From NCBI GenBank assembly GCA_947363605.1, contig CANAQK010000014.1:1-36288 (forward strand): a stretch of DNA of 36,288 bases, written 5' to 3'. Position 1 is the first letter of the stretch; each line of letters begins with the position of its first letter. The notes beneath the pieces are model-generated. The model ran no database searches. It saw nothing but the letters and a program-made list of their open reading frames with translations, and had not been told where the DNA came from. This document shows positions 2,933 through 36,288 of this stretch, piece after piece. Source of the stretch: an uncultured Clostridia bacterium (GTDB lineage: Bacteria > Bacillota > Clostridia > Oscillospirales > Ruminococcaceae). Position numbers and translations under genes: made by a program.

Positions 2933-2963
2933 AACCCCTCCCCATGACTATGGGAGAGGGGTT
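2933..2963. terminator. Bidirectional intrinsic terminator
   Basis: AACCCCTC pairs with GAGGGGTT around a short CCCAT/ATGGG stem, with TTT on the right and an A-run on the left. It lies between the convergent permease and citrate synthase genes and can serve both. Confidence 0.8.
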
Positions 2964-2971
2964 TGCTGCGG

Positions 2972-4345: not shown

Positions 4346-4535
4346 AAATCACACGCTCCTTTTCTGTCGGTTCGGGTCTTTTCAAACGTTTTACTTGGGG
4401 GGATCGGTGTTGGTTTTTATATCCGGAGGGAGCCTGCTTCATGCTCCCGATGCCCCAAGGGACGCTGCTTTTCTGCCGTATAGAAGGGGGTGGGGTCCCC
4501 CTTTGCAGAACGGGCAGGAAAGGTGAATATTTTTT

Positions 4536-5160: not shown

Positions 5161-7071
5161 TTATTTTCCGGCCAGCAGGGCGCAGACCAGATCCGCATAA
5201 GCGGTGGGGTCTTCAATCGGGAAGCCGGCAATCAGCAGCGCCAGCTGATACAGCAGCTCGCTCAATTGGGAAGCGTGCTCTTTGTCAGAAGCAAAGGCTT
5301 CTTTTAACAAAGCCAGCACCGGGTGCGAAGCATTCAGCTCCAGGATGTGTTCGGCTTTCATGCCGCCTTCCGGGTTGGCCTGGGCGAAGTATTTTTCCAT
5401 TTCCAATGAGATAGCGCCGTCGCTGGACAGGAATACCGGGTGGGTTTTCAGCTTCTCCGAGAAACGGACCTCTTTGACCTTGCCGTTCAGGCTGTCCTTG
5501 ACGAAATCCAGAAGCTCTTTATGCTCCTTGGTTTGTTCCTCGGCGGTTTTGCGTTCTTCCTCGTCGGTGATATCGTCGCTGCTGACGGATTTAATCTCTT
5601 TACCGTCCAGTTCGTGCAGGATCTGCATGACAAAATCATCCACTTCGTCAGTAAGATAAAGGATCTCATACCCCTTGGCTTTGATAGTTTCGGTCTGGGG
5701 CAGGCGGTCCGCTTTGATGATGGTGTCCGCGCAGGCATAGTAGACGAATTTCTGATCCTCCTTCATCCGGGAAGCATATTCCGCCAGCGAAACCATTTTC
5801 TGCTCGGTCGAGGAGTAAAAGAGCAGCAGGTCTTTCAGGTCGTCCTTATGCGCCCCGAACTCGCCGGCTACCCCATATTTGAGCTGGAGTCCGAAATTCT
5901 TGAAGAAGGTTTCATAGCTTTCCCGCTCATTTTCCAGCATTTTGAGCAGCTCGCGCTTGATTTTTTTCTCGATATTCCCGGCAATCACCTGAACCTGACG
6001 GTTTTGCTGGAGCATCTCGCGGGAAATATTCAGGGAGAGATCCTGGGAGTCCACGACGCCGCGGACAAAGCGGAAATGCTCGGGCAGCAGCTCGGCGCAG
6101 CGGTCCATGATGAGCACGCCGCTGGAGTAAAGCTGGAGCCCTTTTTCATAATCCTTGGTATAGTAATCATAGGGGGTGCGGGAGGGGACGAAGAGCAGCG
6201 CTTCGTAGGAAACCACGCCTTCGGTGCTGACATGGATGGTTTTAAGCGGATTGTCGTAATCGGAGAATTTTTCTTTATAGAACTGGTTGTAGTCCTCGTC
6301 CGAAACCTCGCTTTTCTGCTTATGCCAGATCGGGATCCGGTCATTGAGGGTTTCATTTTCAATATAGGTTTCGAATTCCGGCGCTTTGTCCTCGGAATCC
6401 TCCGCTGTTTTTACCGGGCGGCGTTTTTCTACATCCATGTTGATGGGGTAGCGGATGTAGTCCGAGTATTTTTTGACCAGCCGGCGGAGGGTGTACTCCT
6501 CCAGGAAGCGGGAGTAGTTTTCCTCTTCTGTGTCAGGTTTAAGCTGCATGATGATTTCTGTCCCGATGGAATCCTTGCTGCATTCCCGGATCTCATAGCC
6601 CTCTGCCCCGGAGGAAACCCATTCCCAGGCAGTGTCCGATCCGCAGGCGCGGCTGCGTACCGTGACTGTGTCGCTGACCATGAAGGCAGAGTAAAAGCCG
6701 ACGCCGAATTGGCCGATGATATCGATTTCTTCCGGCTTGTTTTCCTGGTCCGCCATGGATTTTTTGAATTGCAGGGAGCCGCTTTTGGCGATGACGCCCA
6801 GATTTTCCTCCAGCGCCTGGGCGTCCATCCCGACGCCGTTATCCGAGATCGTCAGGGTGCGGGCTTCACGGTCGGGCAGGATGCGGATTTCCAGCTCGTT
6901 CCGGTTCAGGCCGGGTTCGCCGCCGGTCAGCGCACGGTAAGCCCGCTTGTCCAGCGCGTCGCTGGCGTTGGAGATCAGCTCCCGCAGGAAGATCTCGCGG
7001 TTGGTGTATATGGAGTGGATCATCAGATCCAGCAGGCGTTTGGACTCCGCCTGGAATTCTTTCTTTGACAT
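5161..7071 (-). CDS. htpG: Molecular chaperone HtpG (Hsp90)
   Basis: A 636-residue Hsp90-family chaperone, the full bacterial length. The N-terminal GHKL ATPase domain shows Glu31 and Asn35 in ELISNASDAL, the DNGVGMD motif (Asp77) and the GQFGVGFYSAF lid glycine loop (about 120-130). The middle domain has the conserved SREMLQQNRQ catalytic-loop arginine region. It acts as a cytoplasmic, ATP-driven client-folding chaperone. Start ATG 7071 follows AAAGGAG. The upstream region carries a CIRCE-type operator overlapping the start of transcription, so control by HrcA is likely. Confidence 0.97.
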   Translation of the reverse strand: MSKKEFQAESKRLLDLMIHSIYTNREIFLRELISNASDALDKRAYRALTGGEPGLNRNELEIRILPDREARTLTISDNGVGMDAQALEENLGVIAKSGSLQFKKSMADQENKPEEIDIIGQFGVGFYSAFMVSDTVTVRSRACGSDTAWEWVSSGAEGYEIRECSKDSIGTEIIMQLKPDTEEENYSRFLEEYTLRRLVKKYSDYIRYPINMDVEKRRPVKTAEDSEDKAPEFETYIENETLNDRIPIWHKQKSEVSDEDYNQFYKEKFSDYDNPLKTIHVSTEGVVSYEALLFVPSRTPYDYYTKDYEKGLQLYSSGVLIMDRCAELLPEHFRFVRGVVDSQDLSLNISREMLQQNRQVQVIAGNIEKKIKRELLKMLENERESYETFFKNFGLQLKYGVAGEFGAHKDDLKDLLLFYSSTEQKMVSLAEYASRMKEDQKFVYYACADTIIKADRLPQTETIKAKGYEILYLTDEVDDFVMQILHELDGKEIKSVSSDDITDEEERKTAEEQTKEHKELLDFVKDSLNGKVKEVRFSEKLKTHPVFLSSDGAISLEMEKYFAQANPEGGMKAEHILELNASHPVLALLKEAFASDKEHASQLSELLYQLALLIAGFPIEDPTAYADLVCALLAGK

Positions 7072-7094
7072 ATCAAAGGCTCCTTTTTATAATT

Positions 7095-7121
7095 TTAGCA
7101 GTCCTATTGACTGAGTGCTAA
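7095..7121 (-). promoter_or_regulatory. CIRCE operator (HrcA binding site) upstream of htpG
   Basis: Read on the minus strand: TTAGCACTC, 9 nt, GACTGCTAA. This is the CIRCE consensus (TTAGCACTC-N9-GAGTGCTAA) with one mismatch in the second arm. It lies between the -10 TATAAT and the htpG ribosome site, the usual place for HrcA repression. Confidence 0.9.
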
Positions 7122-7122
7122 T

Positions 7123-7128
7123 ATTATA
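7123..7128 (-). promoter_or_regulatory. -10 element of the htpG promoter
   Basis: A consensus TATAAT on the minus strand directly before the CIRCE element. No good -35 is seen at standard spacing. Confidence 0.55.
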
Positions 7129-7260
7129 ATAGCGCGGAGCGCGGCCGGATGGGTGAATAAACTATGAATTTTTTGAGCCAATAGATGCAGAGGCTGGTTT
7201 CTGCAAAACGGCAGGATTTTTTGCGGGGCGCGGGCATCCAAAATAATTCTGGCAAAAAGT

Positions 7261-7289
7261 TTGCTTTTTGCCGGAATTTATACTATAAT
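7261..7289 (+). promoter_or_regulatory. Promoter of the aldolase gene
   Basis: TTGCTT, a 17-nt spacer, then TATAAT. The predicted start leaves a leader of about 95 nt before the aldolase ATG. Confidence 0.8.
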
Positions 7290-7391
7290 AAAGGCAGGAT
7301 TCGGGTGCGCTGCCGGCGCGTCCTGAATAAAACGGCGGGCCCGTCGGCTTCGGGCTTCCGGCTGAATTTCCAAAATACAGGAGGAAGAACT

Positions 7392-8255
7392 ATGTTAGTA
7401 TCGGCAAAAGAAATGCTTACCAAAGCAGTGGCTGGCAAATATGCAGTCGGTCAGTTCAACATCAACAACCTGGAATGGACCAAAGCGGTTCTGCTTACCG
7501 CGCAGGAGAACCAGTCCCCGGTTATCCTGGGTGTTTCCGAGGGTGCCGGAAAATATATGTGCGGGTATAAGACCATTGTCGGGATGGTAAACGGGATGCT
7601 CGAGGAGCTGGGGATTACGGTCCCGGTTGCTCTGCATCTGGATCACGGCAGCTACGAGGGCGCAAAAGCCTGCATTGCAGCCGGTTTCTCCTCTGTTATG
7701 TTCGACGGTTCCCACTACCCGATCGAGGAAAACATCGCCAAGACCAAAGAGCTGGTTGCGATCTGTGAGGAAAAAGGGCTGTCGATCGAAGCGGAAGTTG
7801 GTTCGATCGGCGGTGAGGAAGACGGTGTTGTCGGAGCGGGTGAGTGCGCAGACCCGAAAGAATGCAAAATGATCGCAGATCTGGGCGTTACCATGCTGGC
7901 TGCCGGGATCGGCAATATCCACGGCAAATACCCGGCAAACTGGGCTGGGCTGAGCTTTGAAACCCTGGATGCTGTTCAGGCATTGACCGGTGATATGCCG
8001 CTGGTCCTGCATGGCGGCACCGGCATTCCGGAAGAGATGATTAAAAAAGCGATCTCGCTGGGCGTGGCTAAGATCAATGTCAACACCGAGTGCCAGCTTT
8101 CGTTTGCGGCGGCTACCCGGAAGTATATCGAAGCCGGCAAGGACGAGCAGGGCAAGGGCTTCGACCCGCGGAAGCTGCTGGCTCCGGGCTTTGAGGCGAT
8201 CAAGGCGACGGTGAAAGAGAAAATGGAGCTGTTCGGCTCGGTCAATAAAGCGTAA
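7392..8255 (+). CDS. fba: Class II fructose-1,6-bisphosphate aldolase
   Basis: A 287-residue zinc-dependent aldolase that interconverts fructose 1,6-bisphosphate with dihydroxyacetone phosphate and glyceraldehyde 3-phosphate. LHLDHG carries catalytic Asp84 and zinc ligand His85; the other zinc ligands are His177 (GNIHGKYP) and His207 (VLHGGTG). The DGS (105-107) and NVNTE blocks bind the phosphates. The start ATG follows AGGAGGAA. The frame is open for another 207 nt upstream, but that part has no family match and contains the promoter. The gene is monocistronic between a strong promoter and a strong terminator, as usual for a highly expressed glycolytic enzyme. Confidence 0.96.
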   Translation: MLVSAKEMLTKAVAGKYAVGQFNINNLEWTKAVLLTAQENQSPVILGVSEGAGKYMCGYKTIVGMVNGMLEELGITVPVALHLDHGSYEGAKACIAAGFSSVMFDGSHYPIEENIAKTKELVAICEEKGLSIEAEVGSIGGEEDGVVGAGECADPKECKMIADLGVTMLAAGIGNIHGKYPANWAGLSFETLDAVQALTGDMPLVLHGGTGIPEEMIKKAISLGVAKINVNTECQLSFAAATRKYIEAGKDEQGKGFDPRKLLAPGFEAIKATVKEKMELFGSVNKA

Positions 8256-8281
8256 ACAGGAAAGGGGTTTCCGGCAGGAAG

Positions 8282-8329
8282 CCCGCTATAAGAAATCCCC
8301 GCTGAAAAGCGGGGATTTCTTATAGCGGG
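8282..8329. terminator. Long bidirectional terminator after fba
   Basis: A perfect 22-bp stem with a GAAA tetraloop. The inner AAATCCCCGCT/AGCGGGGATTT hairpin followed by TTTCTTAT forms the actual intrinsic terminator. Confidence 0.88.
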
Positions 8330-8384
8330 GAACGGGTTATTGATTGTATTGCCGGTGGAGCATAGGCAGGGAAAATATCCCAGA

Positions 8385-8425
8385 AAAAGGGAAAGGCCAA
8401 TCTTTGCGGATGGTCTTTCCCTTTT
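8385..8425 (-). terminator. Terminator for the minus-strand membrane-protein gene
   Basis: AAAAGGGAAAG pairs with CTTTCCCTTTT, extended by CCA/TGG. On the minus strand it ends in CCCTTTTTCT, 3 nt after the stop codon. It can also back up termination of fba. Confidence 0.8.
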
Positions 8426-8427
8426 GA

Positions 8428-9009
8428 TTAGCTCCGGGGCTTGGGGCCCTCTTTTTTTTCCTTGTAGACCAGCTTCTGCTTGATTGAGAAGTCCCGGCTG
8501 CCCAGTTGGTAAGCAAACTCAGCGATGGCCACCGGGATCAGATGGATCAGCAGCGCGACGGAGATCGCCTGGAACCAGTTATAATCGGGCAGGTACATGG
8601 AAATCTGGATCAGGTTGATGACCGGCCAGAGCTCGGCATTCAGGAATTTATACAAAACGACAAAATTCGGGAAAAGCCCGGCCTTGGAGAGCAGGAAAAA
8701 CACCCCTGTCAGGAAGAAGGGGATCATGGCCAGCAGGCCGATCTGGATCCCTCTCCAGCGGTTCAGGGTTATATGCCCGAAATGGGCACGGTTTAAGTCG
8801 GCGTGCCCGATTTCCCACATGGTACGGTAAACGGGCAGGGAATAGACCAGCAGGACGATGGGGGTACTGATCCATAATCCGTTCCCAAACAGCAGCGGGC
8901 TCATGCCAATACAGAAGATGAGAGCGACAATGATGCCGCCGCAATGGCTCCACAGCAGGGAGAGCACGGCTTTTTTCAAATCGGTTCGGTTTTCATTGGT
9001 TGGTTTCAT
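8428..9009 (-). CDS. Integral membrane protein of unknown function
   Basis: A 193-residue hydrophobic protein with about four membrane segments (near 24-41, 45-62, 86-108 and 146-167) and a basic C-terminal tail. I recognise no catalytic or transport motif. AAAGGAG lies 10 nt before ATG 9009. Repeat copy C lies about 90 bp upstream, so the promoter must lie in that gap or in the repeat, or transcription comes from rlmL through the repeat. A terminator follows. The gene is real by length, ribosome site and composition; the role is unknown. Confidence 0.75.
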   Translation of the reverse strand: MKPTNENRTDLKKAVLSLLWSHCGGIIVALIFCIGMSPLLFGNGLWISTPIVLLVYSLPVYRTMWEIGHADLNRAHFGHITLNRWRGIQIGLLAMIPFFLTGVFFLLSKAGLFPNFVVLYKFLNAELWPVINLIQISMYLPDYNWFQAISVALLIHLIPVAIAEFAYQLGSRDFSIKQKLVYKEKKEGPKPRS

Positions 9010-9101
9010 GGGAGGTCGGCTCCTTTCAGAAAATTTACGGGAGAGGTTCGAGGCTTTGGATATTGGAATGCGAGCGCTGTTCCAACGGCCTGGCAGGGGA
9101 A

Positions 9102-9284
9102 TATAGTCGGCACACCCTCAAATCGGATGCCGATTTGAGGGTCAGGCTTTGCCCGTTCGCGCATAAAATGCGCTGTGCGCCGTCTATGAAGCCCTACCGC
9201 ATGGCCGCTTCGCGGCCCACTGCGGCATGATATGCCGCAGTGGTGAAAAGAAGCCAATGCTTCTTTTCAAGTGCGTTGACTATA
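9102..9284 (-). repeat. R1 interspersed repeat, copy C (183 bp, inverted)
   Basis: Complete copy in the opposite orientation to the others, with TATAGTC at both ends. Its ACCCTCAAA/TTTGAGGGT terminal hairpin is intact. The left end of the element lies inside the 3' end of the methyltransferase gene and supplies its last five codons and stop. Confidence 0.9.
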
Positions 9285-10397
9285 GTACATATAAAGCTGG
9301 CACTTCATCATCCCGTTATAGAGCTTCCGGCGTTTTACAGCCGTTTTGCCATAGAGGCTTTCGAATTTTTCGGAAGGGCTGATGACATATACCGATGCCT
9401 GTTCCAGCGGGGAAAAGACTTGCCCCATGACACGGTAAAGACGGTTGGCATCCTCCTGCTCCAGCATCCGCTCCCCATAAGGGGGGTTGCAGGCGATGAC
9501 CGCCGGGCCGGGATTTTTGAGGGCAAAATCCCGGATATCCTTTTGCTGAACCAGCATCCGGGAAAACACGCCGGCGCGTTTGGCATTCTGCTTGGTCAGC
9601 TCGATGGCGGCGGGATCGATATCCGAGCCGTAGGCGAAAAATTCCGTATCCCGGCGGATCCCTTCAATACCGCGGGAGCGTTCCTCCTGCCAGACGGAGT
9701 CTTCGAACAGGCCGAAATTTTGGGCTGAAAATTTCCGTTTCAGGCAAGGCGGGATGTTCAGCGCCTTGGTGGCGGCTTCAATCAGCAGGGTCCCTGAGCC
9801 GCAGAAGGGGTCGTAGAAGACCCCGCCGTTCCGGATGCGTGCCAGGTCTACGATACCGGCCGCCAGGGTTTCCTTGATGGGGGCGGCGTTGGCGTTCAGG
9901 CGGTAGCCCCGTTTATGAAGCCCGGCGCCCGAGGTATCCAGCATCAGGGTAACCTCGTCATGGTGGATGGAAAATTGGAGCTGGTGCAGGGGTCCAGTTT
10001 CCGGGAACCAGTCCATCCGGTAATGCTGCTTCAGCCGTTCTACCGCCGCCTTTTTGATGATGGCCTGGCAGTCCGGGACGCTCATCAGCTGGGAATTCAG
10101 CGCCCAGCCTTTGACGGGGAATGCGTCCTTGGAGCCGATAAAATCCTCCAGCGGGAGTTTCCGGACGCCCTGGAACAGCTCTTCAAAGGAGCGGGCGGTA
10201 AACTGCCCCAGCTCAATCAGCACCCGCTCGGCTGTCCGCAGGCAGATGTTGGCCCGGGCAAGGATATGCTCGTCCCCCTCAAAGGTGACCTTCCCGTTAT
10301 GGGAAACGACGTTTTCCGCTCCCATCCGTTTCAGCTCGCCCGCAAGCACGCTTTCCAGCCCGAAATGGCAGGGGCTGGCATAGTGGTAAAGACTCAT
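9267..10397 (-). CDS. THUMP-domain class I SAM-dependent RNA methyltransferase (RlmL/YpsC type)
   Basis: A 376-residue protein related to the N-terminal half of E. coli RlmL (23S rRNA m2G2445 methylation) and to B. subtilis YpsC. A THUMP RNA-binding domain (about 45-155) is followed by LDTSGAGLHKRGYR (153-166), the SAM-binding motif DPFCGSGT (196-203) and the catalytic NPPY (304-307). ATG 10397 is chosen because AGGAGGAAAC precedes it; the frame is open for 14 more codons upstream without a ribosome site. The C-terminus ends YMYYSQRT, and the codons for SQRT and the TGA stop come from repeat copy C. The native end is replaced, but the catalytic core is complete. Confidence 0.92.
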   Translation of the reverse strand: MSLYHYASPCHFGLESVLAGELKRMGAENVVSHNGKVTFEGDEHILARANICLRTAERVLIELGQFTARSFEELFQGVRKLPLEDFIGSKDAFPVKGWALNSQLMSVPDCQAIIKKAAVERLKQHYRMDWFPETGPLHQLQFSIHHDEVTLMLDTSGAGLHKRGYRLNANAAPIKETLAAGIVDLARIRNGGVFYDPFCGSGTLLIEAATKALNIPPCLKRKFSAQNFGLFEDSVWQEERSRGIEGIRRDTEFFAYGSDIDPAAIELTKQNAKRAGVFSRMLVQQKDIRDFALKNPGPAVIACNPPYGERMLEQEDANRLYRVMGQVFSPLEQASVYVISPSEKFESLYGKTAVKRRKLYNGMMKCQLYMYYSQRT

Positions 10398-10505
10398 GTT
10401 TCCTCCTGGTTTTGATATACACAGCTCCAGTCTATACAAGACTATAGCCGTTTTTTTTGAAAAAGAAGCAAATGTTTCTGCGATTTTCGGAAGTTTCCGG
10501 GAAAA

Positions 10506-11150
10506 CTAATCCCGCCCGATCAGCTCGATAACCGCCTCCGGGACTTGGCTGAGATGGTCGACGGTACGGTCCCCATCCGCCACTTCCGCCGGGCAGAAGC
10601 CGTGCAGGCAGCCGATAAAAGGCAGGCCGTTGGCCTTCGCCGCCTGCTTGTCATAGTACCGGTCCCCCACCATGACGGCGGCTTCAGGCTGGGCCCGTTC
10701 CAGCAGGAGCCCCAGGGTCTGGTCCTTAATCAGCCCGGGAAGCAGGGGCTGGATTTCGTCTATTTTATCCAGCAGCCCAAGCCGGCCCAGCACCATCCGG
10801 ATATAACGTTCGGACGCATTGGAGCAGACTGCGGTGCGGAAGCCCAGCTCATGCAGCCGGTCCAGCATTTTGTCAGCCCCGTCGTAAAACCCGGCGTACT
10901 GTTGGATAAATTCCTGTTCATAAGCGGCTTCCTGGGAAAAATACGTTTCGATTTCGTCCAGGTTGTCCGTCCCGATCAGGGCCAGCCCGCAGTCCAGATA
11001 ACGGGCGCCGAAAGTGGCGATGATATCCTCGGCTGTTTTGTCGAAAATACCGCGCTCCGCCAGCGCTTTTTTATGAGCGGGAACCGCGTAGAGCTCGGTC
11101 CGGTTCAGGGTTCCGTCCAGGTCGAAAACGACCAGTTTGATAGGGTTCAT
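10506..11150 (-). CDS. HAD-superfamily phosphatase (phosphoglycolate phosphatase-like)
   Basis: A 214-residue HAD hydrolase of the Gph/PgmB-like subgroup with a helical cap. Motif I DLDGT carries nucleophile Asp10 and acid/base Asp12; motif II is Ser110 (VCSN); motif III is Lys142 (LIKD); motif IV is VGDRYYD with Asp163 and Asp167. The substrate cannot be told from sequence. ATG 11150 follows AGGAGGTTTGAC; the longer open frame upstream has no ribosome site. It lies 108 nt upstream of the methyltransferase gene on the same strand and may be cotranscribed with it. Confidence 0.9.
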   Translation of the reverse strand: MNPIKLVVFDLDGTLNRTELYAVPAHKKALAERGIFDKTAEDIIATFGARYLDCGLALIGTDNLDEIETYFSQEAAYEQEFIQQYAGFYDGADKMLDRLHELGFRTAVCSNASERYIRMVLGRLGLLDKIDEIQPLLPGLIKDQTLGLLLERAQPEAAVMVGDRYYDKQAAKANGLPFIGCLHGFCPAEVADGDRTVDHLSQVPEAVIELIGRD

Positions 11151-28977: not shown

Positions 28978-29164
28978 CTATATTTTTTCGTGGCTTTGGG
29001 AGCGAAAACCCTCTTTTGATAAAAATGCAAATGATACATAATAGAAGAATTAAATTTAGTTAAGTTTTATAGGAGAAAGATTTTTAGAAAAATAATTCAG
29101 TTTTATATATTATAAAACTTTACTAAAAATACTTTTTTGATAAATGTATTTTTTATAAAATTAC
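28978..29164. other. AT-rich intergenic region upstream of the array promoter
   Basis: No gene is seen. The DNA is strongly AT-rich, with A- and T-tracts and an AGTTTTATA/TATAAAACT hairpin at 29099-29119. It may act as an UP element for the promoter at 29165 or mark an acquired segment. Confidence 0.5.
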
Positions 29165-29193
29165 TTGACAAACGGATATTCTGCGGGTATAAT
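29165..29193 (+). promoter_or_regulatory. Consensus promoter of the secreted-protein/array operon
   Basis: TTGACA, 17 nt, TATAAT. The leader of about 118 nt contains the palindrome GCCTATAGGC and ends with a strong AGGAGG site. No other promoter of this quality is seen before 36161, so it may drive the whole array. Confidence 0.9.
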
Positions 29194-29317
29194 AAATACA
29201 AAGAGGAAAGAGCTCCCTCTTCCGGCAGATAACGTCAACCGCTGTTTGTTGAATCCGCGCCTATAGGCCATCCGTTTCGCCACATGATTAAGGAGCAAAG
29301 TTATAGGAGGTTTAACG

Positions 29318-30061
29318 ATGAAATTTGGCAAGATTTTCAAGCGTACACTCTCGATGCTCACGGCAACGGCAATTTTCTGTTCACTGAGCATCCCGGCATT
29401 CGCACAATCCCCCAACAGCGATGAAAACGGCGAGTATGTAGTAACCTATCGGGCGGAGCCTGTCACAGACATTGATGCACTGGTTGCGCTGGCGGCCCAG
29501 CAGCCGAAAGCCGCTTCTTCTGAGGAAGAGGACGACGGTTTGCTGCGGGTTAAACAGCTCACAGAAGTTCGGGAATATGCGGACGGTTCGGTTGAAAAGG
29601 ATTATGCTGAAAGTGCGATTGCACTGGCAGCAGATCAAAATCTCAGTAGTACGCATTATGATAATCATGTAAAGGGTTATACAGTTGTTGCTACGCTGAA
29701 TTATACATATAGATACGATGGTGGAATGAAGTATCGTGTAAATAGTGTAGTAACTAGAATTGAAAAGACAAGTATGACAGAGATGCGAATTGAAGATATA
29801 GAACTATATTACTGTTGTTCTACTCAAGATTTTAGTTATAAGAATTTTTCTTATAATAATAGTAGCCCTATTGGAACACAAACTTTTACGCTTCCAAGTA
29901 AACATTCGGGCTTTTATTTCAGTTCTTCAGATGCTAGCGCTACAGAGCAAGGTGTAGCAGCACAGTGTGCTATTGATATCGGTAAAAAAGTAGAAGAGAA
30001 CGGTAAAGAAATTATCAAAATAGTAGATCAGATTGTATTGCATATGTTTGTTTCGAAGTAA
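29318..30061 (+). CDS. Secreted protein of unknown function
   Basis: A 247-residue protein with a clear signal peptide (basic MKFGKIFKR, hydrophobic core, AFA-QS cleavage near 29/30). The mature part begins with an acidic, Ser/Glu-rich linker (EEEDDG near 70) and has a Tyr/Ser/Asn-rich C-terminal half with a Cys-Cys pair (YYCCST). No domain is recognised. AGGAGG precedes the ATG. The DNA changes from normal composition to AT-rich at about 29640, inside the gene, so the two halves may have different origins. It is the first gene behind the consensus promoter and lies 33 nt before array gene P1. Confidence 0.7.
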   Translation: MKFGKIFKRTLSMLTATAIFCSLSIPAFAQSPNSDENGEYVVTYRAEPVTDIDALVALAAQQPKAASSEEEDDGLLRVKQLTEVREYADGSVEKDYAESAIALAADQNLSSTHYDNHVKGYTVVATLNYTYRYDGGMKYRVNSVVTRIEKTSMTEMRIEDIELYYCCSTQDFSYKNFSYNNSSPIGTQTFTLPSKHSGFYFSSSDASATEQGVAAQCAIDIGKKVEENGKEIIKIVDQIVLHMFVSK

Positions 30062-30094
30062 GTGAGACATACTGACTGTAAAGGAAATACCACT

Positions 30095-30937
30095 ATGAAA
30101 CCAAAATCGCTTCGCCGCGGCGCAGTCCTTGCTGCTATGCTCCTGATTGCCGGGTCGATCGTGCCGGTGGTCTATTGGCTTCATCCGTCGCTTCGGCTGG
30201 ACAATCTTCATACCTTCTGTTACCCCGGCTTGGAATGGGGTATGACTATGGAGGAAACACGGGAAGCCCTTGGGATTGAAGAAGAGCATTTCCGTGAAAC
30301 CCATCAGTTTGAAAATGAAGTCTATACCGAACGGGTGGTAGCTGTCCGCCGTCAGGAATTTTTGGGAGAAGAAGTTCAGGTTAATTTTCGATTCATCCAG
30401 TTTTCCGATTCGGACAAACCCCGGTTAACAGGGATGATTATTTCCAGCAGGATGATGGGCCATGATGCTTCCACCGATGAAACCTCAGAGGAATATTTTG
30501 GACGCCTTGAAAATTGGCTGAAGGAGCAGGGAGCGGAGTATACCGTCCGGACGGAGAACTTTAAAGAAGAGCCGGGCGAGTATAGAGGGTTCTATGTCGG
30601 AGACAGTGACTCCCACTATGACGAAATAGAAGGCAAACCGCTTTTTATCACCGCCTATTTCGAAAGCAGGGCGGATATGCGCGACCAGCCGAAACGGTAT
30701 CAAAAGAGTTTTAATGAGATTTATAACTGGCAGGTTGGAATGGAACTGCGGGATCCGCCCGAAGGCTGGAGTATTGAGAACCTTTACGATCTTCGTGACG
30801 GAGGGGTGAAGCTTCCTCTGGTGACATTAGAAGCGAGTTATTTCTATCCTTCTGAAGAGATGGAGAAAGGCGCACATGGTGGTGTGTTAATCAATGCCTG
30901 GGAGCTGGCGTATCTGGTCGCGCAGTCGAAGAAATAA
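30095..30937 (+). CDS. Array protein P1 (YPGLxWGxT family, membrane-anchored)
   Basis: A 280-residue protein with one N-terminal membrane helix (about 9-30, GAVLAAMLLIAGSIVPVVYW) and an outside domain. The family block LDNLHTFCYPGLEWGMTMEE, followed by a Leu-Gly a few residues on, recalls the G-M-T-x-E-x-V-x-x-x-L-G helix of BamE/SmpA and BLIP-like folds; that link is only an inference. Further shared blocks are RRQEFLG, NWLKEQGAEYTV, RADMRDQPKRYQKSF and the end AYLVAQSKK. ATG 30095 follows AAGGAAA. The DNA is identical to P5 except for about eight changes in the first 160 nt. Confidence 0.8.
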   Translation: MKPKSLRRGAVLAAMLLIAGSIVPVVYWLHPSLRLDNLHTFCYPGLEWGMTMEETREALGIEEEHFRETHQFENEVYTERVVAVRRQEFLGEEVQVNFRFIQFSDSDKPRLTGMIISSRMMGHDASTDETSEEYFGRLENWLKEQGAEYTVRTENFKEEPGEYRGFYVGDSDSHYDEIEGKPLFITAYFESRADMRDQPKRYQKSFNEIYNWQVGMELRDPPEGWSIENLYDLRDGGVKLPLVTLEASYFYPSEEMEKGAHGGVLINAWELAYLVAQSKK

Positions 30938-30952
30938 ACCCCCAAAAACAGC

Positions 30953-30970
30953 CGCCTGCCCTTACAGGCG
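30953..30970 (+). terminator. Intercistronic hairpin after P1
   Basis: CGCCTG, 6-nt loop, CAGGCG. It is one of a series of similar hairpins in the array spacers. It lacks a T-run and so probably acts as a partial terminator or mRNA stabiliser. Confidence 0.5.
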
Positions 30971-31000
30971 ACAGTTGTAAAAAATAGGAGGGTATCGTCT

Positions 31001-31138
31001 ATGACAAAGAAATCGCTTCGTTGGGTCATCATTTCCGCAGCGGTGCTGTTTACAGGATGCGGCTTCCGGCCCGAAATCCTTCCGCTGACTGCCGATTCCT
31101 CGATTGTCCCGGCTGAAAATCTGAAACTCTATTTATAA
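31001..31138 (+). pseudogene. Truncated array copy, hybrid of P6-like and P3-like parts
   Basis: A 45-residue ORF with the standard array start (AGGAGGGT site, MTKKSLRW). Residues 1-16 (LRWVIISAAVL) match P6; from LFTGC onward (lipobox, then ADSSIVPAENL) they match P3, and the frame stops where the YPGL domain should begin. It could still be made as a tiny lipoprotein, but it looks like the remnant of an unequal recombination. Confidence 0.7.
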
Positions 31139-31155
31139 AGTACGGAGGAAAATGA

Positions 31156-32040
31156 ATGAAATTAAAAAAGCTGACAGGCGTTCACTGGGTTTTGATCATT
31201 GTGAGCATCCTTTTTATAGGCAGCTTGTTCATCGTGTTTTTTCCCAAGCCTGTTCCTCCGCCCTCTTCAAGGCCGACCCCGGCGGCTGATCTGGATTCCC
31301 TTCATGTCTTTCATTACCCCGGCTTGTCCTGGGGCGCAACGGTGGACGAGGTAAAGGAAAAGTTTGGCCTGTCGGAAAACCCCGGCCCTCTCGATCCGTT
31401 TAATGCTTTTGCTTCGACTTCTGCTTTGGCAACCGGCAGTGTGGATTTTTTGGGCCGGAAAGCGCAGACCAATTTTAACTTTTGGTGGGAATATGGCTCA
31501 GACCGCGGCGAGCTGTGTAATGTAACCGTCCGTATTCCGCTGTCGTTTGAACAGAGGGAGGAAGAATACGACAAGCTGTGCAAAGAGGTAGAAGCCTTGT
31601 CCAGAGAACAGGTGCCGGAGTTCGGCTCGTATTTCAACAAGAAAATGCGGGATGTGCATAATCCTGGCGCCTATGTGGATATGTGGGATACCGGCTATGA
31701 AGGCGAGGACGTTCCTTGGCAGTTCTATGAAATGGAGTTTTTCGGCGGCGACCGCCTGCTGAATATGCCCCAGGAATATCAGGACAGCTATAATAAGTTC
31801 CGGGGTCAGTTGTTTGTCAATGGGATTGTAACGGACACCTATGACCCGGATTGGGACTACAGCAAGAAGCCTTTCGATTATATTGAGAAGGAAGACCGCT
31901 TTTTGACCTTCACCGGGATTTACATGGATGTAGACCATGTCGGTAAAATAGCAACGGCAAAGATCATGTTTGATGGCCGTTGCATGATCGAACCGATTTC
32001 GGCTCACTATGTCATGAGCCTGGACAATGTTTTTAACTGA
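31156..32040 (+). CDS. Array protein P2 (divergent family member)
   Basis: A 294-residue protein with an N-terminal membrane helix (about 10-30, HWVLIIVSILFIGSLFIVFF), a Pro-rich linker (PKPVPPPSSRPTP) and the family block LHVFHYPGLSWGATVDEV. Its C-terminal domain is the most diverged, but it keeps VDFLGRKAQTNF and MPQEYQDSYN, which match P3 best. It lacks the AYLVAQSKK end. ATG 31156 follows GGAGG. No hairpin precedes it, unlike the other copies. Confidence 0.78.
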   Translation: MKLKKLTGVHWVLIIVSILFIGSLFIVFFPKPVPPPSSRPTPAADLDSLHVFHYPGLSWGATVDEVKEKFGLSENPGPLDPFNAFASTSALATGSVDFLGRKAQTNFNFWWEYGSDRGELCNVTVRIPLSFEQREEEYDKLCKEVEALSREQVPEFGSYFNKKMRDVHNPGAYVDMWDTGYEGEDVPWQFYEMEFFGGDRLLNMPQEYQDSYNKFRGQLFVNGIVTDTYDPDWDYSKKPFDYIEKEDRFLTFTGIYMDVDHVGKIATAKIMFDGRCMIEPISAHYVMSLDNVFN

Positions 32041-32049
32041 ATAGCTTGT

Positions 32050-32085
32050 ACAAAATCCGCCTGCCCCAAAACAGGCGGATTTTGT
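32050..32085 (+). terminator. Intercistronic hairpin after P2
   Basis: ACAAAATCCGCCTG pairs with CAGGCGGATTTTGT, a perfect 14-bp stem with TTTT in the 3' arm. It can act as an attenuator between P2 and P3. Confidence 0.65.
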
Positions 32086-32106
32086 AAAGAATAGGAGGGT
32101 GAGTCT

Positions 32107-33006
32107 ATGACAAAGAAATCGCTTCGCTGGGTTTTAAGAATAACCGTGCTTTTCGTAACCATCGGCCTGTTCACCGGATGCGCTTCTCAACCGCCTCAGC
32201 AAGAGTTCCTTCCTCCAACGGCAGACCCCTCGATTGTCCCGGCTGAAAATCTGGAAGACCTCCATGTATTTGGCTACCCCGGCCTGGAATGGGGCATGAC
32301 CATGGAAGAAGTACAGGAAACACTGGGCTTGACAGACTCAGACTGGAGCTTGGATAGTACGCTTGAGGATGGCTCGGAAATCCAGGCAACCGCATACCTC
32401 GATTTCTTAGGGCAGAAATATCAGACCAACTTTTGCTTTAATCAGATGAATTATTCTGATACGAAAATGCTAACCCGTGTCGATATTTTCTCACTGGTGG
32501 ATTCTGTGAACCCGGATGCAAACCAGCCGGGCTATGACAAAATTCGCGGCCAGGTGGAGTCTATGCTCAAGGAACAGGGCGGGGAATTTACCGTTACGGT
32601 GGATCAGATGAAACCAAGTATGTATTATCCGAATGGAGTGGCTCATCTGTACAATTCGGATTATAACGATCTTGGGGATGCAGAATGGGAAATCTTTTTG
32701 ACTGCATTCCATGGAACGGAAGGCTTATCTCATCTGCCGAAGGAATATCAGGACAGCTATAACCAAATCTTCCGCCGGCTGGTGGAAAGCGGGGAAATTT
32801 CTGAACCTTCCGGTTGGGATCCTCAGAAGTTCTTTGACTTTTGCGCGTATTCTTCTAACCCTTTGATTACTGCCGAAGTGAGGCTGGATATGAACTATAC
32901 ACGGGACGAAGAAAGTGGATCCTTGCGCATGACTTTTGATGCTTATGAATTTGTATGTGCGCTGTCCTGTCACCGTACCGTAGAACAAGAGAAATCTGCA
33001 AAATAA
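32107..33006 (+). CDS. Array protein P3 (lipoprotein form)
   Basis: A 299-residue predicted lipoprotein: a hydrophobic signal ending in the lipobox LFTGC, with Cys at about 26. Then come the linker ADPSIVPAENL and the family block LHVFGYPGLEWGMTMEEV. The domain keeps YLDFLGQKYQTNF, MLKEQGGEFTV and LPKEYQDSYN. The start region (AGGAGGGTGAGTCT, MTKKSLRW) is almost identical in DNA to the truncated copy, P5 and P6, although the mature domains differ strongly. Confidence 0.8.
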   Translation: MTKKSLRWVLRITVLFVTIGLFTGCASQPPQQEFLPPTADPSIVPAENLEDLHVFGYPGLEWGMTMEEVQETLGLTDSDWSLDSTLEDGSEIQATAYLDFLGQKYQTNFCFNQMNYSDTKMLTRVDIFSLVDSVNPDANQPGYDKIRGQVESMLKEQGGEFTVTVDQMKPSMYYPNGVAHLYNSDYNDLGDAEWEIFLTAFHGTEGLSHLPKEYQDSYNQIFRRLVESGEISEPSGWDPQKFFDFCAYSSNPLITAEVRLDMNYTRDEESGSLRMTFDAYEFVCALSCHRTVEQEKSAK

Positions 33007-33010
33007 TCTA

Positions 33011-33043
33011 CAAAATCCGCCTGCCCCAAACAGGCGGATTTTG
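33011..33043 (+). terminator. Intercistronic hairpin after P3
   Basis: CAAAATCCGCCTG pairs with CAGGCGGATTTTG, a perfect 13-bp stem, nearly the same as the hairpin after P2. Confidence 0.65.
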
Positions 33044-33062
33044 AATAACAGGGGGGAACTTT

Positions 33063-33901
33063 ATGAAAAAGAAATCAATGATCTGGCTGTTCAGCGCGAT
33101 CGCAGTCGTCTTAGCCGCAGTTTTAGTCCTGCTGGCCGTATGGGCTTGAAACCCTCCCCGAAATTAAATAATCTCCATACCTTCTGTTATCCCGGCTTGG
33201 AATGGGGCATGACCATGGAGGAAGCCAGTGAGGCCCTTGGGGTCAAAGAGGGTAATTTCCGTGAAACGATGCGGCAGGAGCAGGGCCTTTTTACCCACAT
33301 TACCGTACCGGTTTCTAATCAGGAATTCCTGGAGATGGACTATAAACGAAGCACGATTATGCTCCGGTTCATCCAGTTCGCCTATACGGAGGAACCCCTG
33401 CTGGCAGGTGTGATTTTACCTTCTGCCGGTACTTACCCGATTGAGGAAACCCAGGAGGAGTACGTCGGACGGATCGAGGATTGGCTGAAGGAGCAGGGGG
33501 CGGAGTATACCATCCAAATGGAGAATCAAAAAGAAAATCCCGATCAGCCGGGCCGGTATATCGGCGAAAATAACCCCCGTTATGCCAGCGTGGAAAGCGA
33601 TCCGAGGTTTGCCATGATTACGGTGAAAAGTAAGGCGGATATGCGCGACCAGCCGGAAAAATATCAGAAAGGCTTCAGCGAGATTCACAATTATTTGCTC
33701 CGGAACCGGATCATAGAAAGGCCGGAGGACTGGAGCATGGAGAAGTGGATTGATATTTCTTCCAGCGAGGAGCGGTTCCCGCTGGTGACCGTGAGGGCGG
33801 ATTACCTGTTCCAATCGGAAAATACTGAGCAGGACAGACGGGGCGTTATTACGATTGAAGCCTGGGGGCTGGCGTATCTGGTCGCATATTCGAAGAAATA
33901 A
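33063..33901 (+). pseudogene. Array gene P4, frameshifted after the membrane helix
   Basis: ATG 33063 (site AGGGGGGAA) opens a frame encoding a membrane segment (MKKKSMIWLFSAIAVVLAAV... to VWA) that stops at TGA 33147. The rest of the gene, from KPSPKLNNLHTFCYPGLEWG to AYLVAYSKK at 33901, is intact in the +2 frame. Adding one G to the GGG at 33142-33144 would restore a full protein of about 280 residues. Either the gene is broken, or it is switched by slippage, or the domain is made by reinitiation at ATG 33140, which overlaps the stop region and would give a form without an anchor. The body resembles P1/P5. Confidence 0.75.
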
Positions 33902-33909
33902 ACCCCCAA

Positions 33910-33939
33910 AACAGCCGTCTGCCCTTACAGGCAGCTGTT
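33910..33939 (+). terminator. Intercistronic hairpin after P4
   Basis: AACAGC pairs with GCTGTT outside a TCTG/CAGG stem. The spacer is like those after P1 and P5. Confidence 0.5.
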
Positions 33940-33962
33940 GTAAAAAATAGGAGGGTGAGTCT

Positions 33963-34805
33963 ATGACAAAGAAATCGCTTCGCCGCGGCGCAGTCCTTGC
34001 CGCTATGCTCCTGATTGCCGGGTCGATCGTGCCGGTGGTCTATTGGCTTCATCCGCCGCTTCGGCTGGACAATCTTCATACCTTCTGTTACCCCGGCTTG
34101 GAATGGGGCATGACCATGGAGGAAACACGGGAAGCCCTTGGGATTGAAGAAGAGCATTTCCGTGAAACCCATCAGTTTGAAAATGAAGTCTATACCGAAC
34201 GGGTGGTAGCTGTCCGCCGTCAGGAATTTTTGGGAGAAGAAGTTCAGGTTAATTTTCGATTCATCCAGTTTTCCGATTCGGACAAACCCCGGTTAACAGG
34301 GATGATTATTTCCAGCAGGATGATGGGCCATGATGCTTCCACCGATGAAACCTCAGAGGAATATTTTGGACGCCTTGAAAATTGGCTGAAGGAGCAGGGA
34401 GCGGAGTATACCGTCCGGACGGAGAACTTTAAAGAAGAGCCGGGCGAGTATAGAGGGTTCTATGTCGGAGACAGTGACTCCCACTATGACGAAATAGAAG
34501 GCAAACCGCTTTTTATCACCGCCTATTTCGAAAGCAGGGCGGATATGCGCGACCAGCCGAAACGGTATCAAAAGAGTTTTAATGAGATTTATAACTGGCA
34601 GGTTGGAATGGAACTGCGGGATCCGCCCGAAGGCTGGAGTATTGAGAACCTTTACGATCTTCGTGACGGAGGGGTGAAGCTTCCTCTGGTGACATTAGAA
34701 GCGAGTTATTTCTATCCTTCTGAAGAGATGGAGAAAGGCGCACATGGTGGTGTGTTAATCAATGCCTGGGAGCTGGCGTATCTGGTCGCGCAGTCGAAGA
34801 AATAA
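33963..34805 (+). CDS. Array protein P5 (near-identical copy of P1)
   Basis: A 280-residue protein identical to P1 apart from its first residues (MTKKSLRR instead of MKPKSLRR) and Pro for Ser just after the membrane helix. About 680 nt at the 3' end are base-for-base the same as P1. Site AGGAGGGTGAGTCT. It has the same single N-terminal helix and family block as P1. The identity points to a very recent duplication or gene conversion across about 3.9 kb. Confidence 0.8.
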   Translation: MTKKSLRRGAVLAAMLLIAGSIVPVVYWLHPPLRLDNLHTFCYPGLEWGMTMEETREALGIEEEHFRETHQFENEVYTERVVAVRRQEFLGEEVQVNFRFIQFSDSDKPRLTGMIISSRMMGHDASTDETSEEYFGRLENWLKEQGAEYTVRTENFKEEPGEYRGFYVGDSDSHYDEIEGKPLFITAYFESRADMRDQPKRYQKSFNEIYNWQVGMELRDPPEGWSIENLYDLRDGGVKLPLVTLEASYFYPSEEMEKGAHGGVLINAWELAYLVAQSKK

Positions 34806-34819
34806 ACCCCAAAAAACAG

Positions 34820-34839
34820 CCGTCTGCCCTTACAGGCGG
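34820..34839 (+). terminator. Intercistronic hairpin after P5 (hybrid spacer)
   Basis: CCGTCTG pairs with CAGGCGG. The left arm is of the P1/P4 spacer type and the right arm with its TTTTG tail is of the P2/P3 type, so the hairpin itself looks like a recombination joint. Confidence 0.55.
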
Positions 34840-34867
34840 ATTTTGTAAAAAATAGGAGGGTGAGTCT

Positions 34868-35647
34868 ATGACAAAGAAATCGCTTCGCTGGGTCATCATT
34901 TCCGCGGCGGTGCTGCTGGCCGTGGCCGTCGTAATAACGTCTGTTTTCCTGTTCCGTCCGTCCGCCAAGCTGGACAATCTCCAGGCATTCTGCTACCCCG
35001 GCCTGGAATGGGGCATGACCATGGAGGAAGTACGGGAGGCCCTAGATTGCAATGAAGTAAATTTCAGCGAAACACTTCGGTTTGAAAATGAAACATATAC
35101 CAGTATCGGCGTGGCAGTTCGCCATCAGGAGTTTTTGGGCCGGGATGTTCCGATTGAATTTTGGTTTGATCAATTCTATGATTCGGATGAACCCCGGCTT
35201 TCCGGGATGACGATTGATATGTTCTGGGAAAACAGGAATCCTCTTGAGGGGGATCAGAAAGACTGGGTGCAGCTTCTCGAAAGCTGGCTGAAAGAGCAGG
35301 GAACCGAATATACCCTTCGGGTTGAAGAATTGGAATATGAAGAGGGGTCGAGCGGCGCTACTGCTTATATTGAAAGCAAGACCGATTTTCGTGACCAGCC
35401 AAAGCGGTATCAAAAAAGCTACGGCAAAGTTTATAATGAAAAGATTAAGCTTGGGTTTGTGGAAGCCCCCGAGAACTGGTCTCCGGAGAATCCGGTTGAT
35501 CTTAGGAGTGATGAAGTCCGGCTTCCGCTGGTGACAATTGAATCATCTTTTCAGCCTCGTTCAGAAGAAGTGGAAGGAGATATCCCTGTTACGACAAAAA
35601 TTTTTGCCAGGGAGCTGGCATATCTGGTTGCACAATCGAAGAAATAA
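34868..35647 (+). CDS. Array protein P6 (shortest full member)
   Basis: A 259-residue protein with the standard array start (MTKKSLRW), a membrane helix (about 8-30, WVIISAAVLLAVAVVITSVFLF) and the family block LDNLQAFCYPGLEWGMTMEEV. It keeps RHQEFLG, SWLKEQGTEYTL, FRDQPKRYQKSY and the end AYLVAQSKK. It is shorter than P1 by about 20 residues because the segment between the last two of the middle blocks is reduced. A strong terminator follows. Confidence 0.8.
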   Translation: MTKKSLRWVIISAAVLLAVAVVITSVFLFRPSAKLDNLQAFCYPGLEWGMTMEEVREALDCNEVNFSETLRFENETYTSIGVAVRHQEFLGRDVPIEFWFDQFYDSDEPRLSGMTIDMFWENRNPLEGDQKDWVQLLESWLKEQGTEYTLRVEELEYEEGSSGATAYIESKTDFRDQPKRYQKSYGKVYNEKIKLGFVEAPENWSPENPVDLRSDEVRLPLVTIESSFQPRSEEVEGDIPVTTKIFARELAYLVAQSKK

Positions 35648-35652
35648 ACGAC

Positions 35653-35681
35653 AAAGCCGCCTGTATCTTACAGGCGGCTTT
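35653..35681. terminator. Terminator at the end of the array
   Basis: AAAGCCGCCTGTA pairs with TACAGGCGGCTTT (13 bp, 3-nt loop). It is the array hairpin in its longest form and separates P6 from the convergent nuclease gene, which ends 30 nt further on. Confidence 0.8.
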
Positions 35682-35711
35682 CTAGGACTTTCGTAAGAAC
35701 AAGCGGCATTT

Positions 35712-36137
35712 TTAAGAGATATCGTCCAGACATTGACTGGAACGCATGGAGGTGATCTTGGCCCTCAAGGGAGTAATCAGGCTTTTTACGTTATTCGTGC
35801 TTTTGGAAGAAAGTGCGTTGACCCTGGCTTGTACATAACGGTTATAAGTCGGGTGATTATAGAGGTTGTCCGAGCTTCTGTGGCTGGGTAGGGAAGTACT
35901 TGGGACAGCGCCGGGGGTTCGAGGGAGTTCGATCAGGTTATCGCTTTGGTTAAATTTGCTTTCGACGCCGTTGCTGTAGTAGTTGGGGAATGTGTTTTTT
36001 ACTACGCTGCGGGGGATGATATGATGGTTTTCATGTTGAGCTGCTTTGGCAGGAGAAGCAACCATAAATTTGACCTGGCTTCCGTATTCTGCGTCTGGAT
36101 GGAGCGTCATCTTCTTGGGGAAGTTCATCCACATCAT
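35712..36137 (-). CDS. Stand-alone AHH/HNH-type nuclease domain protein
   Basis: A protein of about 141 residues that matches the nuclease tip of Rhs/WapA-type polymorphic toxins. The key motifs are HENHHIIPRSVVK (metal-binding His pair), SDNLIELP and NHPTYNRYVQARVNAL. These tips normally sit at the C-terminus of very large secreted proteins; here there is no signal peptide or delivery domain. ATG 36137 is chosen (GGCGG 8 nt upstream); GTG 36146 is possible, but its leader would be only about 8 nt. It could be an orphan toxin module, a domesticated nuclease or a DNA-mobility relic. It converges on the P array. Confidence 0.7.
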   Translation of the reverse strand: MMWMNFPKKMTLHPDAEYGSQVKFMVASPAKAAQHENHHIIPRSVVKNTFPNYYSNGVESKFNQSDNLIELPRTPGAVPSTSLPSHRSSDNLYNHPTYNRYVQARVNALSSKSTNNVKSLITPLRAKITSMRSSQCLDDIS

Positions 36138-36160
36138 CTTTTTCACCGCCTTTTTCTTTC

Positions 36161-36189
36161 AGTGTAACATCTTCCGGCAGGGAAAACAA
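36161..36189 (-). promoter_or_regulatory. Promoter of the AHH nuclease gene
   Basis: Minus-strand TTGTTT, 17 nt, TACACT, giving a very short leader. Confidence 0.65.
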
Positions 36190-36195
36190 GAGGTT

Positions 36196-36224
36196 TTGCG
36201 TTTAAAGCGGAACTGTGCTATAAT
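36196..36224 (+). promoter_or_regulatory. Strong promoter pointing out of the window
   Basis: TTGCGT, 17 nt, TATAAT. It is divergent from the nuclease promoter. The gene or RNA it drives starts at or beyond the right edge. Confidence 0.7.
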
Positions 36225-36246
36225 AAGCGCAAAGCGCTTATTATAG
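36218..36246. repeat. Perfect 13-bp palindrome over the outward promoter
   Basis: CTATAATAAGCGC, loop AAA, GCGCTTATTATAG. The left arm contains the plus-strand -10, and the right arm contains a TATAAT for the opposite strand. It could be an operator or a 5'-end hairpin of the outward transcript. Confidence 0.7.
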
Positions 36247-36288
36247 GGATGGCCGGGGCGATCCGTTCGCGCAGGCTCACTGCCGCCC

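What the first reader, a model, noticed from the sequence alone, without database searches (positions are those of the whole stretch)
30095..35647. Tandem array of YPGLxWGxT membrane/lipoprotein paralogues
Six related genes plus one fragment lie in a row. All have a similar start region, one membrane anchor or lipobox, the block (L)xxLHxFxYPGLxWGxTxxE, and strongly diverged bodies. I recognise no described family for the full proteins. The WGMTxEEV...LG pattern resembles the first helix of BamE/SmpA and BLIP-like folds, so they may be surface inhibitors or ligand-binding proteins kept in many variants.
Basis: partly seen in the sequence, partly recalled or inferred. Interest (0 to 1): 0.78.

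Follow-up and report, generated by a model that had tools for sequence, protein, structure and literature searches.

The report
Swappable secreted protein with partner array
A row of related membrane-anchored proteins in an uncultured Clostridia genome sits right behind a secreted protein whose tail is swapped between relatives together with the type of anchored partner, which looks like a secreted weapon with a stock of shields, although no toxicity has been shown.

Summary
The array is real: five open paralogues (P1-P3, P5, P6), one whose frame breaks just behind its anchor (P4), and a 45-codon fragment. P1 and P5 are near copies. No library family fits. The missed key is the gene just upstream (29318-30061): a signal-peptide protein with a conserved N-part and a variable, AT-rich C-part. 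In the genus I found 11 genes of this secreted family plus one orphan C-terminal tip; all 12 are followed on the same strand by membrane-anchored proteins of one of four kinds. The C-part follows the partner kind (homologous in 13 of 13 same-partner pairs, 4 of 32 different-partner pairs), while the N-part is shared (30 of 32). A related species (G006) has three array copies, one a chimera and one (P6) identical in protein although the flanks differ by about 15%. Best reading: a polymorphic, Sec-exported antagonistic protein with outward-facing immunity proteins kept as a polyimmunity array, like TelC/TipC but without detected sequence homology. Toxicity, binding, topology and fold are untested (the structure server was always busy). 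The BamE/BLIP idea rests on weak, sub-threshold matches. New variant of a known kind.

The parts
29165..29193 (+). sigma-70-like promoter, 12 of 12 consensus matches, upstream of the secreted gene
   Evidence: a consensus match only; the only 12/12 site of 16 found in 29000-36288, where shuffles give 9.1 sites on average
29318..30061 (+). secreted protein gene (247 aa): signal peptide, conserved N-part (about aa 1-107), variable AT-rich C-part (about aa 108-247); inferred toxin or effector
30095..30937 (+). P1, N-terminally anchored YPGLxWGxT protein, 280 aa; first gene behind the secreted gene (33-bp gap); predicted cognate partner
31001..31138 (+). fragment: 45-codon ORF with the array's start region and a lipobox, no body; also present in relative G006
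31156..32040 (+). P2, anchored paralogue, 294 aa
32107..33006 (+). P3, lipoprotein paralogue (lipobox FTGC), 299 aa
33063..33901 (+). P4, paralogue with its frame broken just behind the anchor; body open in another frame
33963..34805 (+). P5, near copy of P1 (98.9% aa)
34868..35647 (+). P6, anchored paralogue, 259 aa; 100% identical in protein in relative G006, where it is the first intact partner behind the secreted gene
32049..32086 (.). CCGCCTG..CAGGCGG hairpin behind P2; like hairpins at 30951-30972, 33011-33043, 34820-34839, 35653-35681
35712..36146 (-). AHH nuclease (PF14412) ORF, convergent with the array; not read as the toxin of the array

Best explanation
The array is a homogeneous polyimmunity locus. 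The upstream gene makes a Sec-exported two-part protein: a constant N-part and an exchangeable C-part that does the harm outside the cytoplasm of competing, closely related cells. Each P protein is tethered to the outer face of the cytoplasmic membrane and would bind and neutralise one version of the C-part; P1, directly behind the secreted gene, is the predicted cognate partner. When a new C-part plus partner replaces the old one by homologous recombination, older or foreign partners stay or accumulate behind it as protection. Shared blocks (leader plus first codons, the YPGLEWG block, the 3' end plus hairpin) let partners duplicate, delete and recombine. Shown here: the array, the operon-like order, the modular secreted family, the partner kind following the C-part, one chimera, exchange of a partner between species. 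Inferred: harm, binding, specificity, outward topology.
For: (1) Genus census of the secreted family: 7 of 8 genomes, 12 places; in all 12 anchored proteins follow on the same strand (read). Of the 8 in-genus gaps measured, 7 are 5-33 bp and one (G006:C132) is 138 bp, with a remnant of a partner in it. (2) C-part follows partner kind: 13 of 13 same-partner pairs C-homologous (z>5), 4 of 32 different-partner pairs; N-part homologous in 13 of 13 and 30 of 32; label permutation 1 of 5000, without two close orthologues 4 of 5000. (3) Synonymous divergence is higher in the C-part in both species pairs tested (0.59 to 2.07; 0.20 to 0.67; Fisher on rounded counts p 2.2e-4 and 2.5e-4), which replacement by recombination explains better than relaxed constraint. 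(4) One orphan C-terminal tip directly followed by its own partner, in G005. (5) G006's third array gene is a chimera of a P4-type start and a P1/P5-type body: 69:3 versus 55:185 informative sites, 0 of 2000 permutations, breakpoint about 104 nt after the ATG, at the YPGLEWG block. (6) P6 has dS 0.048 between two species whose secreted N-part has dS 0.59. (7) dN/dS 0 to 0.43 in every whole-gene pair that gave a value (three pairs gave none): copies are kept. (8) The same logic is in print for esaG/tipC (PMC9484751), TipC topology (PMC6193138) and Vibrio immunity arrays (PMC5361080); passages seen.
Against: No toxin domain is recognised in the secreted proteins scanned (best Pfam hit Porin_6 at E 0.015, below its cut-off). 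A relative in another genus (G127, L100) has no anchored partner; a convergent ribosomal-protein gene follows. Members of the lipoprotein family also occur where I saw no secreted-family gene beside them: G001, G005, G007 and the second G002 copy inside the genus, and G037:C42, G188, G359, G499, G617 and the G593:C42 copy outside (outside the genus judged from ORF listings only). The N-part also correlates with partner kind, more weakly (12 of 5000; 49 of 5000 without close orthologues), so part of the link is common descent. Four different-partner pairs have C-part z>5. The frame-broken G004:C26 secreted gene scores only 0.06-0.12 with the other C-parts of its partner kind. The secreted proteins beside the G593 array and the G424 lipoprotein are not detectably homologous to this family. 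No binding or activity data exist.
Confidence: 0.6

Rival explanations
1. Secreted ligand and anchored receptors: the secreted protein is a recognition or signalling protein (kin recognition, adhesion, matrix) and the array holds alternative receptors; partner and C-part co-vary because they must bind, without any killing.
For: All that shows coupling of C-part and partner fits binding as such; no toxin domain is recognised.
Against: Several diverged partners kept behind one secreted gene, an orphan tip with its partner and a partner shared nearly unchanged between species are the usual marks of toxin-immunity loci; a receptor array has no evident need of off-type receptors.
Confidence: 0.2
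2. Surface lipoproteins diversified against outside agents (phage, host antibodies, enzymes) with a BLIP- or BamE-like fold; the secreted gene is a neighbour by chance.
For: Anchored, variable, tandem, exchanged; family members exist without the secreted neighbour; BamE-like motif, sub-threshold.
Against: 12 of 12 secreted-family places in the genus have anchored partners behind them (and the listings) and the partner kind follows the C-part; whole-gene dN/dS stays below 0.5 where it could be computed.
Confidence: 0.12
3. Immunity array for the adjacent AHH nuclease, a cytoplasmic polymorphic toxin tip.
For: An AHH ORF lies next to the array in both G000 and G006.
Against: A nuclease acts in the cytoplasm (general knowledge of the family) while the P proteins carry N-terminal export or anchor segments; the AHH gene is convergent; in G003 an AHH tip sits in a YD-repeat (Rhs-type) locus, and that genome gave no match to P6 or to the secreted family.
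Confidence: 0.03
4. Ordinary lipoproteins of unknown housekeeping role, amplified without selection for variety.
For: Tandem duplication is shown (945 nt at 98.4% from P1 into the fragment's start and from P5 into P6's start); one copy and one fragment are broken.
Against: Diverged copies under purifying selection, exchange between species and chimera, C-part coupling.
Confidence: 0.05

Closest known systems
TelC/TipC of streptococci (LXG toxin with membrane-anchored, outward-facing immunity protein; up to 15 tipC copies)
   Same: Tandem anchored paralogues with a secreted protein; conserved blocks at gene start and end that recombine; variable copy number; TM or lipoprotein-type anchor (PMC9484751, PMC6193138; passages)
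   Different: The secreted protein here has a Sec signal peptide and no LXG hit; no sequence match of the lipoprotein profile to a TipC chain in the PDB set; a third shared block inside the gene
Polymorphic toxin systems and polyimmunity loci (Zhang et al. 2012)
   Same: Constant N-part, exchangeable C-part, partner gene directly downstream, an orphan tip, tandem immunity-like paralogues (PMC3482391; passages)
   Different: No toxin or immunity family was hit; that paper names Imm65 as the only lipoprotein in its immunity collection, whereas anchored partners are the rule here
Orphan immunity arrays of Vibrio T6SS clusters
   Same: Replacement of effector plus immunity with old immunity genes retained behind (PMC5361080; passages)
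   Different: No T6SS; tandem duplication and recombination between paralogues also contribute here
BamE/SmpA (PF04355) and BLIP folds
   Same: WGMTxEEV...LG resembles the first helix of BamE; in-register but weak alignment; sub-threshold BamE hits in two partners of another family
   Different: Cut-off not reached; the proteins are 259-299 aa against 113 aa for E. coli BamE; no fold could be computed

Membership tests
Polymorphic toxin system | conserved N-terminal part with exchangeable C-terminal part | tested here: met
Polymorphic toxin system | partner (immunity) gene directly downstream, matched to the C-part | tested here: met
   position; match of partner kind to C-part; neutralisation itself untested
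Polymorphic toxin system | orphan or standalone tip cassettes | tested here: met
   one case, G005 (L073 6356-6508 with partner 5725-6330)
Polymorphic toxin system | recognisable toxin domain | tested here: not met
   no Pfam hit over cut-off, no PDB or PADLOC match; a new domain is not excluded
Polymorphic toxin system | toxic activity and neutralisation | not testable with these tools
   needs the bench
Homogeneous polyimmunity locus | tandem paralogous immunity genes, content varying between close relatives | tested here: met
   6 versus 3 copies in G000 and G006, different order and a chimera; that they are immunity genes is inferred
TipC | sequence or fold homology to TipC | tested here: not met
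   profile A2 against PDB chains: two hits at E 0.45 and 0.69, neither a TipC; fold not computed
TipC | N-terminal membrane anchor with outward soluble domain | tested here: inconclusive
   anchor segment seen in sequence; topology not measured
BamE (PF04355) | score over the family cut-off | tested here: not met
   no BamE hit in the window's proteins; 11.8 bits versus 23.2 in two proteins of another partner family
BLIP-like fold | tandem helix plus concave beta-sheet fold | not tested
   structure server busy at every request; no BLIP chain among the PDB sequence hits

The most novel reading that the evidence does not exclude
An undescribed class of Sec-exported polymorphic antibacterial protein in Clostridia that acts outside the cytoplasm, served by at least four kinds of membrane-anchored immunity proteins, three of which may share a small BamE-like module; arrays of these partners record past C-part swaps.
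Probability: 0.42. Interest if true: 0.75.

Novelty: new variant of a known kind. Interest (0 to 1): 0.6.

Why it matters
If right, it adds a small, Sec-dependent, extracytoplasmic antagonism system in Clostridia that none of the family libraries searched here names, and gives a simple two-gene pair (secreted gene plus P1) with predicted non-cognate controls (P2, P3, P6) for a direct test. It also predicts specificity in advance: P1 should match the window's secreted protein, P6 that of G006.

Tried and rejected
AHH nuclease as the array's toxin: rejected (compartment, orientation). Viral origin: two scans of viral contigs found no relative. Homology of the secreted proteins beside the G593 array and the G424 lipoprotein to this family: not detectable, so those loci are cited only as look-alikes. 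Homology between the YPG family and the GEPGD lipoprotein family: only the signal peptides align. Homology to solved structures: none of use. The genome-contig scan returned only the G006 contig. Fold prediction: 25 requests, always busy, so no fold claim is made. Of the 16 of 294 genomes, 11 match only weakly (E 0.0012 or worse; 10 of these at the signal-peptide end of the profile) and were dropped; five genomes (G000, G001, G005, G007, G127) were taken as real. Weak Pfam hits set aside as chance: Phage_TAC_6 (E 4.4e-4, one of 13 members), Porin_6 (E 0.015), DUF6650 (E 0.029).
Full report
OBSERVATION. The window is a whole 36,288-base contig (G000:C14) of a 2.2-Mb draft genome in 133 contigs. 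On its right end six related genes and a fragment stand in a row on the + strand: P1 30095-30937, fragment 31001-31138, P2 31156-32040, P3 32107-33006, P4 33063-33901 (frame broken just behind the anchor), P5 33963-34805, P6 34868-35647. The block around YPGLxWGxT is shared by all six; over the whole length identities to P6 run from 24 to 53%. P1 and P5 are near copies (98.9% aa), and the copy extends over 945 nt at 98.4%, from P1 into the start of the fragment and from P5 into the start of P6, as expected from recombination between start regions of neighbours. A 13-row profile found only these six places in the held genome at E up to 10. No Pfam or NCBIfam family fits the six and no PADLOC family fits the four array proteins scanned (P2, P3, P5, P6); the one Pfam match under E 0.001, Phage_TAC_6 at 4.4e-4 in one of 13 family members, is taken as chance.

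THE MISSED GENE. Directly upstream (33-bp gap) lies 29318-30061, a 247-aa protein with a signal peptide, behind a 12-of-12 sigma-70-like promoter match at 29165-29193. Its C-part has GC 0.33-0.34 against 0.52 for its N-part and 0.53 for the window. In the relative G006 the same split is seen (0.37 and 0.51). Of the other members measured, those of G002, G004, G007, G001 and G000:C52 are AT-rich over the whole gene; that of G005 is so only towards its end (0.475 and 0.416, locus 0.467) and that of G006:C72 only mildly (0.46, locus 0.53). A genus search with the family's profile found it in 7 of 8 genomes, at 12 places, one of them a C-terminal tip only.

WHAT STANDS BEHIND IT. I read the downstream neighbourhood of all 12 places. 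Each is followed on the same strand by membrane-anchored proteins. YPG family: G000:C14 (six), G006:C132 (three), G002:C33, G004:C21, G004:C32 (one each). A second anchored family, mostly lipoproteins, with the block GEPGD.VY.GITFG.T..EV: G007:C1 (three), G001:C45 (two), G005:C79 (one), the G005 orphan tip (one), G004:C26 (one; there the secreted gene itself is frame-broken). A third, single-pass family with a C-terminal GIQIGDSVEEVERILGAPD-like block: G006:C72 (three, plus one other lipoprotein not compared further). A polytopic protein with seven hydrophobic segments: G000:C52. Against the rule: in a further genus (G127) the secreted gene is followed by a convergent ribosomal-protein gene. 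YPG-family genes also occur alone in G001, G005, G007 and a second time in G002, and in other genera and families.

THE C-PART FOLLOWS THE PARTNER. For ten secreted proteins I cut each behind the E.REY motif and scored all 45 pairs against 200 shuffles each (the broken G004:C26 gene and the G005 tip were left out there and used). Same-partner pairs: N-part z>5 in 13 of 13, C-part z>5 in 13 of 13. Different-partner pairs: N-part 30 of 32, C-part 4 of 32 (three are GEPGD-type against G006:C72, one is GEPGD-type against G000:C52). Label permutation on C-part similarity: 1 of 5000; without two close orthologues 4 of 5000. The N-part shows a weaker link (12 and 49 of 5000), so common descent explains part. 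The broken G004:C26 gene has low C-part scores (0.06-0.12) with its own partner kind. An example of discordance: the window's protein is closer to G006:C72 than to G004:C21 in the N-part (0.35 versus 0.18) and the reverse in the C-part (0.05 versus 0.17), and the partner goes with the C-part.

EXCHANGE AND RECOMBINATION. Between G000 and G006 synonymous divergence of the secreted gene climbs from 0.44 at the start to 2.19 at the end; between G007 and G001 from 0.18 to 0.88 (Fisher on rounded counts p 2.2e-4 and 2.5e-4). DNA identity falls gradually, not at one sharp border. Behind it, collinear homology to G006 resumes at the end of P1 with 91.5% identity through the fragment and P2; in between, P1 stands where G006 has a remnant matching the end part of P3 and then P6. 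P6 is 100% identical in protein with dS 0.048 between the two species, against dS 0.59 for the secreted N-part and about 84-86% DNA identity of both flanks. G006's third array gene is a chimera of a P4-type start and a P1/P5-type body, breakpoint about 104 nt after the ATG, at the YPGLEWG block; sliding identity shows three shared blocks, leader plus first codons, YPGLEWG, and 3' end plus hairpin. dN/dS is 0 to 0.43 in every whole-gene pair that gave a value; three pairs were saturated. The diverged copies are maintained.

MECHANISM. The picture matches what is published for T7SS immunity arrays: tipC genes, up to 15 at one locus, recombine through conserved blocks at start and end (PMC9484751, passages); TipC is anchored in the membrane and faces outward, and downstream TipC paralogues did not bind the cognate toxin in the two species tested (PMC6193138, passages); immunity genes of displaced effectors remain as arrays in Vibrio (PMC5361080, passages); tandem immunity genes are known as 'polyimmunity loci', and lipoprotein immunity was rare in that survey (PMC3482391, passages). 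By analogy I read the secreted protein as the antagonist and the anchored proteins as outward-facing immunity, P1 cognate, the rest a reserve. The harm, the binding and the topology are inference. A ligand-receptor reading is not excluded.

FOLD. HHalign puts BamE of E. coli in register on WGMTxEE..LG but at probability 7.7. BamE (PF04355) appears at E 0.21-0.22, below cut-off, in two of the three third-family partners scanned. It is suggestive that the three single-anchor partner families all carry a G.(T/S)..EV-type block (by eye), but comparison of the first two families aligned only signal peptides. Every structure request was answered 'busy'.

PREVALENCE AND NOVELTY. The lipoprotein family was found in 7 of 297 genomes drawn from the family with the six-row profile, and with the 13-row profile in 9 of 394 of the order and 4 of 291 of the class, the window's own genome included each time. 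A second array of four, behind a secreted gene without detectable homology to this one, occurs in G593, another family. Seven paper searches listed, among the titles and abstracts shown, no paper on such a Sec-exported family with anchored partners in these bacteria; the library is partial and cannot be searched by sequence. I file it as a new variant of a known kind.

Noticed in passing
window 35712-36146 (-): AHH nuclease ORF (PF14412, 39.3 bits) near the contig end, also at the contig end in G006; by eye another frame before its start reads like an acidic linker, so it may be a tip cut from a longer toxin gene.
   Followed up: partly
L081 (G003:C1:90000-108000): Single-contig genome of the genus with a YD-repeat (Rhs-type) gene followed by a string of partial toxin-tip ORFs, one with AHH: a classical polymorphic toxin locus.
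   Followed up: no
L057 (G593:C88:54000-72000), 6443-10816: Tandem array of four LLEYPG.SWEATPEEV lipoproteins behind a secreted gene in another family, with identical first 33 codons at protein level in copies 3 and 4 and diverged bodies; copy 4 ends in a repeated tail.
   Followed up: partly
L118 (G006:C72), 1613-4437 (-): Third anchored partner family; two of its three copies share an identical C-terminal block while their N-parts differ, suggesting gene conversion.
   Followed up: partly
L038 (G037:C19:64000-82000), 8094-9304: A small cysteine-rich protein with a signal peptide directly upstream of a single YPGVVWG lipoprotein in another genus: possibly a further secreted-plus-lipoprotein pair.
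   Followed up: no
L036 5023-7624 (G037:C42) and L037 5086-6727 (G188:C66): Pairs of tandem lipoproteins of the wider family without a secreted-family gene seen beside them.
   Followed up: no
window 29200-29223: Inverted repeat between the promoter-like site and the secreted gene, possibly an attenuator.
   Followed up: no
window 36218-36246: Perfect 13-bp inverted repeat CTATAATAAGCGC/GCGCTTATTATAG near the contig end.
   Followed up: no
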